DNA of 11,274 nt, taken from NCBI GenBank assembly GCA_903891375.1, contig CAITEL010000084.1, positions 1 to 11,274 on the forward strand, in the 5' to 3' direction. Both the position numbers and the translations under genes were made by a program. Positions 436 to 5,455 of this stretch are shown piece after piece. A model generated the notes under the pieces. The model was given only the letters and a program-made list of their open reading frames with translations. It was not told the DNA's origin and did not search any database. Origin of the DNA: an uncultured Neisseriaceae bacterium. GTDB taxonomy: Bacteria; Pseudomonadota; Gammaproteobacteria; Burkholderiales; UBA11063. Each line of letters opens with the position of its first letter. Position 1 is the stretch's first letter.

Positions 436-837
436 CTATAAAACCATAAATCTATATAAAGTATGACCACAGCTATTACATGTATAATAACGCCAACGAC
501 TATTTTGATTAAATAATCCAGTATGCTTTATATTATCTGAATTACAATGATTACATGCCACACCATGTGACAATCTACATTGTGGGTTTTGTTCTAAATA
601 CTTGTGCATATCTGGTAATTTATGCCAACGATAGAATTTAACTACCCATCCACACGAATAAAATATCAAACCAGCAATTAAAAACCATATAAAATTTATA
701 CTAAAAAATACAATAAATCCGCCTAATAAAAAAAGTACTAGCATTATCATAAAACAACCACCCAAAAATGGGCTGAACATTAACCCTAAAAACATAAATA
801 ATACGAATGCACCAAGCATTTCCATATAATATAACAT
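436..837 (-). CDS. Small membrane protein with C-terminal zinc ribbon, function unknown
   Basis: This 133-residue protein is not one I recognise by name. Residues about 6-65 are very hydrophobic and divide into two or three membrane segments (about 6-24, 27-46 and 48-64). A basic linker follows (KFYRWHKLP). The C-terminal domain has CNHC (C95, C98) and CNSC (C120, C123), a four-cysteine zinc-ribbon arrangement with 21 residues between the pairs. With two or three segments the side of the ribbon is undecided, though the basic linker favours the cytoplasm. The ATG at 837-835 is 2 bases after the dinG stop, with only a weak AGAG signal upstream; a start at Met5 has no better signal. It sits between dinG and the DUF29 gene in a tight run. 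The reading frame looks real because of the membrane/zinc-ribbon architecture and operon spacing, but no function can be assigned. Confidence 0.8.
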   Translation of the reverse strand: MLYYMEMLGAFVLFMFLGLMFSPFLGGCFMIMLVLFLLGGFIVFFSINFIWFLIAGLIFYSCGWVVKFYRWHKLPDMHKYLEQNPQCRLSHGVACNHCNSDNIKHTGLFNQNSRWRYYTCNSCGHTLYRFMVL

Positions 838-839
838 GC

Positions 840-2975
840 TTATCTCTTTTCTTTTACATTACATATCTTTTGATATGACTCATTAATAAAATCTTTATTG
901 TATTTTCGATTAAAATTAGGCAATGAGTTTAATAACATCGTCCCATAATTCTTTGTAATAACCCGAGAATCACAAATACTTAACTGCCCATAATCTAATT
1001 CATCACGAATTAGTCTTCCAGCAGCTTGAATTAATTTAATACACGTCTCAGGTAAAGATACTTCAATAAAATAATTACTCTTTTCAAACTTTAGCCAATA
1101 CTCTTGCACCATATTTAATGGGTCTTTATGTGTATCAAACGGTAATTTGGTGATTATAACATGAATACAATATAAAGATGGTAAATCAACACCCTCAGCA
1201 AATGAGTTTAAACCAAAAATAATACTCGGTTTACCATTATCTATTTGCTTTTTATGTTCATTAATTAATTTTTGATTACTTAAAAAATCAGTTTGTAACA
1301 AAACACGTTTTTGTAAATCAAGAGGCAATAAAGCATGTGTTTCTTGTAATTGGACTCTATTAAAAAACAATACCAAAGTACCATAACCATCATCATAATC
1401 AATAGTTTTAGTTAAATAATTAGCTAATTCTTTAGTAAATTCATTGCGAGTGGCAAAATCAGGTGTAGAATTAAATCTAGGCACAACAATCTGTGCTTGT
1501 TTTGTATATTCAAAACTTGTATCCAATTTTTTAGTAACCACATTTGGGTATAAATTTAACCCCAGTTTATGCTGATAGTATTTAAAGTCGCTCCCAACAG
1601 CCAAAGTAGCCGAGGTAATCGTTGCTGAATATACTCTACTCCACAACCGATTAAATAACATATTACCCACATGTGTTAAACACGAACTAATAACAAACTC
1701 AATATCTGATTTTATTTGCTTAACTTCAACCCAACGAGCATTGGCATTATAACGTGAATCGTCCTGATTGATCATATATTGACACGTCGCCAATACACTT
1801 TCAATGTTAGCAACGTAAAAACCTAATTTGTTCAGATTTGCTTCCACAACAAAATCCGTACCATCTTTAATCTTTTCTTTTAGCTTTTCTTGTATTTTAA
1901 TTAACCTAGCATATAACTCACCAGCAATAAACGCACAATTTACAAAATGTTCTTTGAATACCTCAACTCCAGAGACCAAATAATCATTTAACATCAATCT
2001 ATTTTCGCTAAACAGATGCGTATTTTGGTTCAAAATAAATAGCAGTTTATCTAATGCTTCACTTAAATCACTAGCAAGTTTGAAAGTATTATCACACAAA
2101 GGAATATCTACAGCGTACAGGTAAAGTTTAGTCTGAGGATTATAAATTAGCCGCGCTAGATGGTCGCAGGATGTCAGAGAATGTTTTAACTCAAATGTTT
2201 CAGTAAAACTATTTATGGCTAAATCTGCAAAGCTATGCCCCTCATCTAAACATAATAAATAATTCTCAGGGGATACTGGTAACACAACCCCACCACCCAA
2301 AGCAATATCAGCCAATAATAAGCTATGATTTGTGACAATAACATCTGCATATTTTAACTCATTACGATTTCTAAAATATGGACAGCGACAATTATCTTTC
2401 TCATTATATGGACAAGAAGAATTTAAACACCGTTCTTTATCTGTCGTAATTAAGGATTTAAGTTTTTTTTCAAATTTAACAGGCATTAAATCTAAATCAC
2501 CACTCCATTTGTTGTTTGAAAATAACTGCGACAATTCATATAATTTTTCTTGGGTTTTGGCGGTATCAAGAAACATATCCGGTTGAATATCCGTATAAGA
2601 TAACTCTAATTGATAAGGACACAAAAAATTAGACCGACCTTTAGCCAAACCATAACTGAATTTCACTCCACTATATTTGATAAAATTAGGGATATCTTTT
2701 TCAATTAATTGCGATTGCAGTGTTTTGGTTGCAGTACTAATTATTAATTTTTTACCTAATTTTTGTGCATTTAATACTCCAGCCACCAGATATGCCAAAC
2801 TTTTACCAGTACCAGTTGGTGCTTCAACTAAACAGATATTATGTCCATCTTTATTGTCAGTATCAACAGCACCAATACATTCATCAATGGTTTTAATCAT
2901 TGCAAATTGGCTAGACCTAACTTTAAAATTAGGCATTCTTTCTATAATATCTTCGTATAACTCATTTACCTGCAT
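840..2975 (-). CDS. dinG: ATP-dependent 5'-3' DNA helicase DinG (XPD-like, iron-sulfur)
   Basis: The 711-residue protein is close to E. coli DinG (716) and has the XPD/DinG superfamily 2 helicase motifs: Walker A EAPTGTGKS (51-59), Walker B box DEGH (244-247), AEGVDLPS (593-600) and motif VI QAAGRLIR (650-657). Candidate ligands for the [4Fe-4S] cluster of this family are C119, C183, C188 and one of C196/C198, lying between motifs I and II as expected. The family unwinds DNA 5' to 3', including D-loops, R-loops and DNA/RNA hybrids, and helps resolve replication-transcription conflicts. Translation starts with ATG at 2975-2973, three bases after the nrdB stop; a weak GGGAT stretch about 8 bases upstream could serve as ribosome binding site. 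The close spacing implies cotranscription with nrdB, linking dNTP supply to DNA repair. YoaA is the main alternative, but the length and cysteine layout fit DinG. Confidence 0.9.
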   Translation of the reverse strand: MQVNELYEDIIERMPNFKVRSSQFAMIKTIDECIGAVDTDNKDGHNICLVEAPTGTGKSLAYLVAGVLNAQKLGKKLIISTATKTLQSQLIEKDIPNFIKYSGVKFSYGLAKGRSNFLCPYQLELSYTDIQPDMFLDTAKTQEKLYELSQLFSNNKWSGDLDLMPVKFEKKLKSLITTDKERCLNSSCPYNEKDNCRCPYFRNRNELKYADVIVTNHSLLLADIALGGGVVLPVSPENYLLCLDEGHSFADLAINSFTETFELKHSLTSCDHLARLIYNPQTKLYLYAVDIPLCDNTFKLASDLSEALDKLLFILNQNTHLFSENRLMLNDYLVSGVEVFKEHFVNCAFIAGELYARLIKIQEKLKEKIKDGTDFVVEANLNKLGFYVANIESVLATCQYMINQDDSRYNANARWVEVKQIKSDIEFVISSCLTHVGNMLFNRLWSRVYSATITSATLAVGSDFKYYQHKLGLNLYPNVVTKKLDTSFEYTKQAQIVVPRFNSTPDFATRNEFTKELANYLTKTIDYDDGYGTLVLFFNRVQLQETHALLPLDLQKRVLLQTDFLSNQKLINEHKKQIDNGKPSIIFGLNSFAEGVDLPSLYCIHVIITKLPFDTHKDPLNMVQEYWLKFEKSNYFIEVSLPETCIKLIQAAGRLIRDELDYGQLSICDSRVITKNYGTMLLNSLPNFNRKYNKDFINESYQKICNVKEKR

Positions 2976-2978
2976 GAA

Positions 2979-4058
2979 TTAATCCCAATCTAACACCCCA
3001 CCACTTTGATATTCAATTACCCGAGTTTCAAAAAAATTCTTTTCTTTCTTCAAATCCATCATCTCACTCATCCATGGAAAAGGATTGGTCGCATTAGGAA
3101 ATAATTGTTCTAAACCAATTTGTTGCATTCTACGATTACAAATAAAACGCAAATAATCTTTAAACATATTTGCATTTAAACCCAGTACACCTCTTGGCAT
3201 AGTGTCTTCGGCATATGCATATTCTAAATCAACACCAGTACGAAATAATTCTACCACCTCTTTTTTCAAAGAGTCAGTCCATAACTTTGGATTTTCTAAT
3301 TTAATTGTATTAATTAAGTCAATCCCAAAATTACAGTGCATTGATTCATCTCGGAGAATATATTGGTATTGCTCAGCACTACCCGTCATTTTATTTTGTC
3401 TACCTAATGCCAAAATTTGCACAAAGCCCACGTAAAAAAAGATACCTTCCATAATACAGGCAAATACAATTAATGATTTTAATAAAGTTTGATCATTTTC
3501 CGTAGTTCCAGTTTTAAAGTTAGGATCAGTTAATGTGTTAATAAACGGGATTAAAAAATCGTCTTTATCTCGAATTGACGGAATTTCATGATACGCATTA
3601 AAAATCTCAGATTCATCTAAACCCAAACTCTCCACAATATACTGATATGCATGTGTATGAATTGCCTCCTCAAATGCTTGACGTAATAAAAATTGCCTAC
3701 ACTCAGGTGCTGTTATCTGCCGATAAGTTCCAAGTACAATGTTATTCGCCGCTAAACTGTCTGCAGTCACAAAAAAGCCCAAATTACGTTTAACAATGGT
3801 ACGCTCATCTTCCGTTAAACCTTTTGGATTTTTCCATAATTCTATATCACGTTGCATATTAACTTCTTGTGGCATCCAATGATTAGCACAAGAGGCAAGG
3901 TACTTCTCCCATGCCCATTTATACTTAAATGGCACTAATTGATTCACATCAGTAGTTCCATTAATAATCCGTTTATCCACAATATTAACTCTACCTGTTT
4001 CATTCGAAATTAGATCCTCAGGTAAACTTACCTCAGCAACTACAGTATTTGTATTCAT
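2979..4058 (-). CDS. nrdB: Class I ribonucleoside-diphosphate reductase, beta subunit
   Basis: The 359-residue protein is the radical-generating small subunit that, with NrdA, reduces ribonucleoside diphosphates to deoxyribonucleotides in the cytoplasm. The di-iron ligands line up with E. coli NrdB: D100, E131 and H134 (in EEAIHTHAY), E204 (in CIMEGIFFY), and E238 and H241 (in RDESMH). The radical tyrosine is present as Y138, so this is a tyrosyl-radical type and not the Phe-containing class Ic. The C-terminus ends SGGVLDWD, shorter than the E. coli tail. ATG at 4058-4056 is preceded by AGGA (4070-4067) at 8 bases. No nrdA lies beside it in this window, which is unusual because nrdA and nrdB are normally adjacent. 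It follows ftsY after 96 bases with no terminator or convincing promoter, so it probably depends on the NrdR-type promoter ahead of ftsY. Confidence 0.95.
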
Positions 4059-4117
4059 TTTTTTTATCCTTTATTAAGTAACTTACAGCGTAGCCATACT
4101 CGATGTATTAATCGCAC

Positions 4118-4156
4118 AACTACTCACATACACAATTCATGCACAAGTAAGTAGTT
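4118..4156 (-). repeat. Imperfect inverted repeat in the ftsY-nrdB spacer
   Basis: Arms 4118-4127 and 4147-4156 are complementary over 10 positions with one G-U wobble in the leftward RNA (AACTACTTAC with GTGAGTAGTT), around a 19-base loop. The upstream arm includes part of the ftsY stop codon. No U-run follows, so it is not a normal intrinsic terminator. It could be an mRNA processing or stabilising hairpin between ftsY and nrdB, or chance. Confidence 0.35.
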
Positions 4157-5300
4157 ATTCGAAGAGTGCGTTTACGTAGTCCCTAGCCTCAAATGGACGA
4201 AGATCATCAATTGTTTCCCCCACACCAATAAAACGCAATGATACTGGGCGCTCTTTAGCAATGGCACAAATAACCCCACCCTTGGCTGTACCATCAAGTT
4301 TAGTTAAGATCAATCCAGTTAAACCCAAAGCGTCATCAAAAGCTTTTACTTGATTTAACGCATTTTGACCAATATTTGAATCTAATACTAATAATATCTC
4401 ATGTGGCGCATTATTCAATGCTTTGCCAATAACCCTTTTAACTTTTTTGATTTCTTCCATCAAGTTAAGCTGTGTTGGTAGCCTCCCAGCAGTATCGGCT
4501 AGCACAATATCAATTTTATTTGCAATAGCTGAATTTATAGCATCAAAACATACTGCCGCTGAGTCACCACCATTTTGTGAAATAACCGTAACATTATTAC
4601 GGTTACCCCACTCTAACAATTGTTCACGCGCAGCTGCTCTAAATGTATCACCAGCAGCTAACATCACCGATTTACCCTGAGTTTGAAAGTATTTGGCTAG
4701 TTTTCCGATAGAGGTAGTCTTACCTGCACCATTAACGCCAACCATCATAATGACAAATGGTTTATGTCCATCCGTTATCAGTGGTTTTTCAATTGGCGTT
4801 AATAACTCTACAATACTATCTTTTAATGCCTCCTTAAGCTCCACCCCATCCTTTAATCCTTTAAGGCTAACTTTTTTACGAATTTTATCTAATAGTTCAG
4901 TTGTGGCAGAATAGCCCACATCAGCAGACAGCAAAATTGACTCTAACTCTTCATAGAGTTCTTCATTAATTTTGCCACCACCAAAAACGCCAAGTAATTT
5001 TTTACCTAACCCATCTCGTGTCTTGGCTAGACCAGACCTTAAACGCTCTCTCCATGACTTTTGCTTAGGATTATCTGCAACCACAGTTTCAGTTATTACT
5101 GCTGGCAATATTTCTTCATTTATTTCTGGTTGCGTTGTTTCATCAACATCACTCAACTTTGCACTATTTAGTACCGTATCTTGTGACGTTAGAGCTATGT
5201 CATCATTATTTACCACTATCGCCGAGTCTAATGTTGTTTGTTCTATAACAACATTTTCTTGTACTGGTACGGTTTTCTTACGTCGAAAAAAATTTAACAC
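4155..5300 (-). CDS. ftsY: Signal recognition particle receptor FtsY
   Basis: The 381-residue SRP GTPase docks ribosome-nascent chain-SRP complexes at the inner membrane and, with Ffh, hands them to SecYEG. After a basic start (MLNFFRRKK) comes a low-complexity acidic A region to about residue 78, much shorter than in E. coli FtsY (497 residues). The N domain follows (about 80-180), then the GTPase G domain with P-loop GVNGAGKTTS (188-197), DTFRAAA (218-224), DTAGR (269-273), TKLDGTAKGG (333-342) and a closing RDYVNALFE membrane-proximal helix. The usual DAxTGQNA segment reads DSNIGQNA, a small departure with the GQN core kept. The start is GTG at 5300-5298, with an AAGAG stretch about 9 bases upstream. 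It is first in a unit with nrdB and dinG behind a promoter with two NrdR-like operators, an unexpected regulator for this gene. Confidence 0.95.
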   Translation of the reverse strand: MLNFFRRKKTVPVQENVVIEQTTLDSAIVVNNDDIALTSQDTVLNSAKLSDVDETTQPEINEEILPAVITETVVADNPKQKSWRERLRSGLAKTRDGLGKKLLGVFGGGKINEELYEELESILLSADVGYSATTELLDKIRKKVSLKGLKDGVELKEALKDSIVELLTPIEKPLITDGHKPFVIMMVGVNGAGKTTSIGKLAKYFQTQGKSVMLAAGDTFRAAAREQLLEWGNRNNVTVISQNGGDSAAVCFDAINSAIANKIDIVLADTAGRLPTQLNLMEEIKKVKRVIGKALNNAPHEILLVLDSNIGQNALNQVKAFDDALGLTGLILTKLDGTAKGGVICAIAKERPVSLRFIGVGETIDDLRPFEARDYVNALFE

Positions 5301-5322: not shown

Positions 5323-5338
5323 ACACTATATATAGTGT
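5323..5338. promoter_or_regulatory. Candidate NrdR box 1, promoter-proximal
   Basis: The perfect 16-bp palindrome ACACTATATATAGTGT matches the known NrdR-box pattern ACAC-W-ATATAT-W-GTGT. It lies directly downstream of the TATAAT of the leftward ftsY promoter, over the predicted transcription start, where a bound repressor would block initiation. NrdR is the ATP/dATP-sensing repressor of ribonucleotide reductase genes. The second box is 43 bp away centre to centre, about four helical turns. Confidence 0.8.
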
Positions 5339-5344
5339 ATTATA
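5339..5344 (-). promoter_or_regulatory. -10 element of the ftsY-nrdB-dinG promoter
   Basis: The leftward strand reads TATAAT exactly, 39 bases before the ftsY GTG, predicting transcription start near 5332. At 16-18 bp spacing the -35 region is a T-rich stretch (about 5361-5368) with no good TTGACA match, running into the second NrdR-like palindrome. The upstream ihfB terminator supports a separate promoter here. Confidence 0.6.
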
Positions 5345-5365
5345 TCATAAAATCAAGAAAAAAAA

Positions 5366-5381
5366 ACACAATATATTGTGT
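5366..5381. promoter_or_regulatory. Candidate NrdR box 2, promoter-distal
   Basis: A second perfect 16-bp palindrome, ACACAATATATTGTGT, also fits the NrdR-box pattern, differing from box 1 only at the two W positions. It overlaps the -35 region of the leftward promoter. Paired NrdR boxes spaced by whole helical turns are the family norm; here the spacing is 43 bp centre to centre, with the -10 hexamer between them. Confidence 0.8.
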
Positions 5382-5405
5382 TTTACTAAATAATTCACAT
5401 GATAT

Positions 5406-5441
5406 AAAAAACCCATATGTTTTAATGCATATGGGCTTTTT
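5406..5441 (-). terminator. Intrinsic terminator after ihfB
   Basis: In the leftward RNA, CCCATATG (5435-5428) pairs perfectly with CATATGGG (5419-5412) around an 8-base loop, followed by six U. It starts 15 bases after the ihfB stop. An A-run before the stem on one strand makes it potentially bidirectional. It separates the tatD-cmk-rpsA-ihfB unit from the ftsY unit. Confidence 0.85.
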
Positions 5442-5455
5442 ATAAATGATAAGGT

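What the first reader, a model, noticed from the sequence alone, without database searches (positions are those of the whole stretch)
5323..5381. Paired perfect NrdR boxes ahead of ftsY place the SRP receptor gene under a ribonucleotide-reductase repressor
Two perfect 16-bp palindromes, ACACTATATATAGTGT and ACACAATATATTGTGT, fit the NrdR-box consensus and bracket a TATAAT: one over the predicted start site, one over the -35 region. NrdR normally sits directly before nrdAB. Here the first gene is ftsY, with nrdB second and dinG third, and no NrdR-like palindrome in the 96-bp ftsY-nrdB gap. If transcription reads through, membrane-protein targeting capacity would respond to dATP/ATP status together with dNTP synthesis. 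I know of no description of ftsY in the NrdR regulon.
Basis: partly seen in the sequence, partly recalled or inferred. Interest (0 to 1): 0.7.

Follow-up and report, generated by a model that had tools for sequence, protein, structure and literature searches.

The report
NrdR-controlled ftsY–nrdB operon in Aquella
In a little-studied group of water bacteria, the switch that normally controls the enzyme making DNA building blocks appears to sit in front of a protein-targeting gene (ftsY) that has one of that enzyme's genes behind it, so the two would be turned up and down together; the switch has not been tested in the laboratory.

Summary
Two perfect NrdR boxes, 43 bp centre to centre (27-bp linker, four helical turns), flank a TGnTATAAT promoter ahead of ftsY-nrdB-dinG. 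They are the only perfect boxes in the 2.08-Mb assembly. nrdR is present, split over two contig ends; nrdA has its own weaker phased pair. Of 23 held genomes of the genus (Aquella, Neisseriales), ftsY lies directly before nrdB in 18 of 19 whose downstream neighbour is visible (exception G020). A phased box pair precedes ftsY in 13 of 19 testable genomes, plus one with a decayed partner. In two sister genomes the boxes stand before nrdB instead; three have none. Outside the genus nrdB is not beside ftsY (0 of 66 ftsY loci; 0 of 27 nrdB loci), while nrdA is beside nrdB (25 of 27). So nrdB left nrdA and came behind ftsY, and the single ftsY came under an NrdR-type operator, probably in the genus ancestor. 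Binding, start site and readthrough are inferred. Where ftsY and nrdB are separated the boxes are with nrdB, and ffh shows no pair: ftsY is more likely a tolerated passenger than a dNTP-tuned SRP component.

The parts
5323..5338 (-). Proximal NrdR box, ACACTATATATAGTGT, perfect palindrome over the predicted transcription start
   Evidence: C4 and G13 present
5366..5381 (-). Distal NrdR box, ACACAATATATTGTGT, perfect palindrome, 43 bp centre to centre from the proximal box
5339..5347 (-). Extended -10 element TGaTATAAT, abutting the proximal box; no good -35 at 16-18 bp
   Evidence: read from sequence; TATAAT between the boxes in 12 of 14 Aquella promoters, the other two TACAAT and TTTAAT; not listed by the consensus scan, which needs a -35
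4155..5300 (-). ftsY, SRP receptor, GTG start, first gene of the operon
   Evidence: TIGR00064 349.5 bits over cut-off 260.7; one copy
4059..4154 (-). ftsY-nrdB gap, 96 bp, no NrdR box; hairpin at its start without a U run
   Evidence: z -1.7, weak
2979..4058 (-). nrdB, class I ribonucleotide reductase small subunit
   Evidence: NF005550 685 bits over cut-off 309
840..2975 (-). dinG-like helicase, 3 bp after nrdB
   Evidence: NF008729 576 bits, below cut-off 598; found behind nrdB in 7 of 14 Aquella loci, the rest lacking it or with short flanks
5405..5442 (-). Hairpin with T runs on both sides between ihfB and the boxes; on the minus strand it would end ihfB transcripts so that ftsY needs its own promoter
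   Evidence: minus strand, z -5.1, 0 of 200 shuffles as stable; the terminator scan listed it on the plus strand only, the minus-strand reading is mine

Best explanation
The two boxes are an NrdR operator for an ftsY-nrdB(-dinG) operon. When dATP is high, an ATP/dATP-loaded NrdR tetramer would bind both boxes, which lie on one face of the helix four turns apart, close the extended -10 promoter between them and repress the whole operon. When dATP falls, repression is lifted and NrdB is made from the same transcript as FtsY, while NrdA is released in parallel from its own NrdR-boxed promoter. The arrangement most likely arose once, in the ancestor of Aquella, when nrdB left nrdA and came to lie behind ftsY. 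Repression of ftsY is most likely a tolerated side effect of controlling nrdB. Shown here: boxes, spacing, gene order, conservation, presence of nrdR. Inferred: binding, start site, readthrough, effect on FtsY level.
For: Both boxes perfect and unique in the assembly. nrdR present in two pieces at contig ends, with D15 and R17, the residues tied to specificity in PMC9110341. Box pair before ftsY with up to 9 mismatches in total in 13 of 19 testable Aquella genomes, 12 of them at 0 of 200 shuffles and one (G016) at 1 of 200. Background: 1 of 636 other 250-bp stretches from Aquella loci and 0 of 64 non-Aquella ftsY upstream regions reach that. Spacing 31-32 in the relatives, 43 here; PMC12051234 reports usual linkers of 15-16 bp, tolerance of four turns and repression at 26 +/- 1 bp (passages); the linker here is 27. 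C4 and G13, the G-C pairs needed in PMC9110341, are in 28 of 28 boxes (partly circular, since boxes were picked by a consensus that holds them). nrdA has a phased pair in 17 of 19 tested genomes. Of 51 sites checked out of 79 at up to 3 mismatches in the own assembly, only these two loci have a phased partner with 5 or fewer mismatches in total; the next best total is 8. ftsY before nrdB in 18 of 19. The boxes stay with ftsY although the upstream neighbour differs, and both deep branches of the tree have them.
Against: No binding or expression data. Three of 19 genomes keep ftsY-nrdB without boxes (G013, G014, G021), G013 despite having nrdR and nrdA boxes; in G010 and G011 ftsY is free of boxes. 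In G020 nrdB does not follow ftsY. G007 has boxes but no nrdR was found, perhaps because the assembly is incomplete. Relatives' boxes are often degenerate (up to 5 mismatches). No -35 is evident, and the scan found promoter-like sites only at chance level (11 against 12.0 expected), three of them weak minus-strand matches inside ftsY that could in principle serve nrdB.
Confidence: 0.85

Rival explanations
1. Adaptive coupling: selection keeps ftsY under NrdR so that membrane-protein targeting is matched to dNTP supply and replication.
For: Boxes precede ftsY in both deep branches of the genus and persist across several changes of upstream neighbour; ftsY is single-copy in 20 of 20 genomes that have it.
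Against: In G010 and G011 the boxes are at nrdB and not at ftsY; ten held loci taken to be ffh show no box at up to 3 mismatches and the own ffh region no pair; G013, G014 and G021 have no boxes at ftsY.
Confidence: 0.15
2. The palindromes serve another regulator that shares an AT-rich 16-bp operator, not NrdR.
For: No binding data; G007 keeps boxes although nrdR was not found.
Against: The same motif with the same helical phasing precedes nrdA in 17 of 19 tested genomes and nrdB in G010 and G011; G020 and G021, where no nrdR was found, also lack boxes where testable.
Confidence: 0.04
3. The boxes control only nrdB in effect: ftsY has another promoter or upstream readthrough that swamps the NrdR effect.
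For: In 11 of 19 genomes a MiaA-like gene ends on the same strand upstream of ftsY, 63-157 bp from its start, so readthrough there is possible.
Against: In the window a stable hairpin with T runs separates ihfB from the boxes and only 22 bp lie between the proximal box and the GTG.
Confidence: 0.15

Closest known systems
NrdR-controlled nrdAB / nrdHIEF / nrdDG operons (E. coli, S. coelicolor, Listeria)
   Same: Two 16-bp palindromic boxes in helical phase at the promoter of a ribonucleotide reductase operon (PMC12051234, PMC12176259 passages); nrdR in the genome
   Different: First gene is ftsY; nrdB is separated from nrdA; four-turn spacing in the window
S. pneumoniae nrdDG and nrdHEF boxes with 24-26-bp linkers (PMC12051234, section 2.1)
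   Same: Linker about one turn longer than usual (27 bp here)
   Different: Different phylum; the -10 lies between the boxes here and downstream of them there; relatives of the window have the usual 15-16 bp
P. aeruginosa topA, a proposed non-RNR NrdR target (PMC4409342 passages)
   Same: A gene outside dNTP synthesis with an NrdR box
   Different: topA has a single box and is reported as activated (questioned in PMC12051234); ftsY has a pair and precedes nrdB

Membership tests
NrdR regulon (operator side) | Two 16-bp palindromic boxes matching acaCwAtATaTwGtgt (consensus letters recalled) | tested here: met
NrdR regulon (operator side) | Centre-to-centre distance an integer number of helical turns | tested here: met
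   43 bp here, 31-32 in the relatives; rule from PMC12051234 passages
NrdR regulon (operator side) | Conserved G-C pairs at positions 4 and 13 of the box | tested here: met
   28 of 28 boxes (partly circular); importance from PMC9110341 passages; the mapping of its positions 9/18 and 40/49 to 4/13 is mine
NrdR regulon (operator side) | nrdR gene in the genome | tested here: met
   Two fragments, 114 and 50 bits, at contig ends, together spanning positions 1-145 of 147; neither alone passes the cut-off of 124.65
NrdR regulon (operator side) | Operon contains a ribonucleotide reductase gene | tested here: met
   nrdB second; co-transcription not shown
NrdR regulon (operator side) | ATP/dATP-dependent NrdR binding and repression | not testable with these tools
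   needs EMSA or MST and a reporter
Canonical nrdAB operon | nrdA and nrdB adjacent | tested here: not met
   nrdA lies on another contig with its own promoter; 25 of 27 held outgroup nrdB loci have nrdA beside them

The most novel reading that the evidence does not exclude
In Aquella, dATP sensing by NrdR sets the cell's only SRP receptor, so that capacity to insert membrane proteins is geared to DNA-precursor status as a selected regulatory link between replication and membrane growth.
Probability: 0.15. Interest if true: 0.7.

Novelty: new variant of a known kind. Interest (0 to 1): 0.45.

Why it matters
It puts an essential protein-targeting gene under the repressor of ribonucleotide reductase in most testable members of a genus. 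The genus also offers natural contrasts: boxes at ftsY, boxes at nrdB instead, boxes lost, and boxes missing where no nrdR was found. That makes it possible to ask whether FtsY level ever needs to follow dNTP status or merely tolerates it. The window itself is a natural case of four-turn NrdR spacing in a genus that otherwise uses three turns.

Tried and rejected
Chance match: rejected. Oddity of one assembly: rejected. Independent nrdB promoter in the 96-bp gap: none listed there and no box, but weak chance-level matches lie inside ftsY; the hairpin in the gap lacks a U run. Regulated ffh: no pair in the own genome.

A printed NrdR-ftsY link: searched as NrdR+ftsY (7 papers), NrdR+regulon+NrdR box, NrdR+RegPrecise, ftsY+nrdB+operon, NrdR+ATP-cone and others, NrdR+Neisseria, NrdR+signal recognition particle. 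Of the 7 papers I opened passages of four; none links NrdR to ftsY (PMC4989314 shows Euo, not NrdR, binding the Waddlia ftsY promoter); the other three I saw only in the listing. Passages of eight further papers (one section and the outline of PMC12051234) hold no such link either. All other papers were seen as listings only. A six-term ftsY expression search returned nothing. The RegPrecise database and Rodionov & Gelfand 2005 were not readable here.

Weak points. Shuffles were of single bases. Most non-Aquella ftsY loci are richer in G+C, so their lack of boxes is partly expected. By the bare score G012 would also pass (9 mismatches with a partner at 41 bp, 1 of 200 shuffles); I set it apart because its partner in register has 9 mismatches. 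Two nrdA pairs are weaker against shuffles: G018 1 of 200, G001 4 of 200; the other 15 are at 0. In one search the frame taken for G008 nrdA was wrong, so G008 was dropped. Tree: support is 49 and 48 at two inner nodes; G011 nrdB failed my text filter and was left out; G020 is placed by ftsY alone on a long branch; the root rests on ftsY alone; G003 and G017 are absent. ftsY was not found in G003, G015, G017, nrdB not in G003, G004, G017.

Full report
What is there. On the minus strand the window reads rpsA - ihfB-like - hairpin - distal box - TGaTATAAT - proximal box - ftsY - nrdB - dinG-like. The boxes are perfect 16-bp palindromes at 5366-5381 and 5323-5338, 43 bp apart centre to centre. 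They are the only perfect matches in the 2,075,562-base assembly. At up to 3 mismatches the assembly holds 79 sites against 82 for a reversed control pattern, and 20 of 200 shuffles of the window hold at least two such sites, so weak single sites mean nothing. One search listed 50 of the 79; with one more found beside them I checked 51 for a partner in helical phase. Only this locus (0 mismatches in total) and the nrdA promoter (5) have a good one; the next best total is 8.

The regulator. nrdR is present in two fragments at the ends of contigs C326 and C22, matching model positions 1-113 and 107-145. The first carries D15 and R17, the residues tied to sequence specificity in PMC9110341 (passages). 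nrdA lies on contig C304 with its own box pair at 32 bp.

The genus. One relative held as a single contig of 2,820,660 bases has the exact length given for the chromosome of Aquella oligotrophica P08 (PMC6612550 abstract), so I take the genus to be Aquella. The family as held contains only these 23 genomes. Twenty carry ftsY, each in one copy at E below 1e-80. In 18 genomes ftsY lies directly before nrdB on the same strand. G020 is an exception: its ftsY contig runs on for about 8 kb and nrdB, a fragment, is on another contig; the 1.5 kb held behind ftsY has no nrdB. In G004 the contig ends behind ftsY. Gaps run from about 10 to 393 bp, apart from 579 and 884 bp in G010 and G011; G011 has a 197-codon opposite-strand frame there.

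Boxes before ftsY. Of 19 genomes with enough upstream DNA, 13 have a pair in register with up to 9 mismatches in total (G000, G001, G002, G004-G009, G016, G018, G019, G022). G012 has one good box (2 mismatches) and a decayed partner (9 mismatches, C4 and G13 kept). G010 and G011, sisters in the tree, have a pair directly before nrdB and none before ftsY. G013, G014 and G021 have none. G020 could not be tested at ftsY. Controls: 645 stretches of 250 bp from Aquella loci were scanned; 10 reach 9 mismatches or fewer, of which 9 are the ftsY or nrdB promoters themselves, leaving 1 of 636; 0 of 64 non-Aquella ftsY upstream regions do, best 12. With the best box fixed, the best partner lies at 31 or 32 bp in 11 of 14 genomes and at 43 in the window; in G012 four offsets tie at 7 mismatches and in G016 the anchor fell elsewhere. 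In 13 of 14 promoters the -10 hexamer directly follows the distal box; in the window it directly precedes the proximal box.

nrdA and nrdR in the genus. A phased pair precedes nrdA in 17 of 19 tested genomes; G021 and G020 lack it (G008 dropped). nrdR was found in 19 of 23, missing in G007, G014, G020 and G021. G020 and G021 group together (support 81), so joint loss of repressor and boxes is plausible, but G020 is only 52% complete, G021 87%, and G020 is placed by ftsY alone. G007 (90% complete) has boxes yet no nrdR was found, which I put down to an incomplete assembly without proof.

Origin. In 66 non-Aquella ftsY loci nrdB is never in the held flanks, which reach up to 5 kb. Of 105 non-Aquella genomes with an nrdB match in the order sample I held the 27 best loci: nrdA is beside nrdB in 25 and ftsY in none. 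Both deep branches of the Aquella tree have boxes before ftsY, so that state is best read as ancestral to the genus. The upstream neighbour is MiaA-like in 11 of 19 (named by recall from its sequence, no family search) but ihfB-like in the window and others in G005, G007 and G009, which all keep the boxes.

How it would work. PMC12051234 (abstract, section 2.1 and passages; [quoted passage not shown] The 27-bp linker here fits. With +1 near 5332, bound NrdR would cover the start and the upstream promoter edge. The hairpin between ihfB and the boxes (z -5.1) could shield ftsY from upstream readthrough, leaving this promoter as its likely source; the terminator scan listed that hairpin on the other strand only.

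Meaning. That ftsY lies in an NrdR-type operon is well supported by comparison. That FtsY needs to follow dNTP status is not. Where ftsY and nrdB are separated (G010/G011) the boxes are with nrdB; ffh, the partner in the SRP pathway, shows no pair in the own genome, and ten held loci of weaker FtsY-like matches, which I take to be ffh by length and identity, show no box at up to 3 mismatches. I judge ftsY a passenger whose repression is tolerated, with a minority chance of selected coupling.

Noticed in passing
L182 / G020:C56:405-4292: nrdA is one 1310-aa open frame whose matches to nrdA residues 23-429 and 427-950 are separated by about 1.1 kb: looks like an intein.
   Followed up: no
L141, L142, L146 (between ftsY and nrdB): Frames of 108, 109 and 119 codons with a signal-peptide-like start and alike in sequence lie between ftsY and nrdB in G005, G009 and G008; G002 and G006 show similar but broken or shorter stretches (read by eye), while G001, near-identical to G006, has only a 43-bp gap.
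   Followed up: partly
window 4090-4150: The ftsY-nrdB gap starts with a long hairpin with no U run (z -1.7), perhaps an mRNA processing or stability element.
   Followed up: no
window 436-837: 133-aa protein directly after dinG with a hydrophobic start and two CxxC motifs; no NCBIfam match.
   Followed up: no
G003:C124: G003 (75% complete) has only a distant nrdA-like frame (29-39% identity), no nrdB match and no ftsY at E below 1e-80: another RNR, a phage gene, or an incomplete assembly.
   Followed up: no
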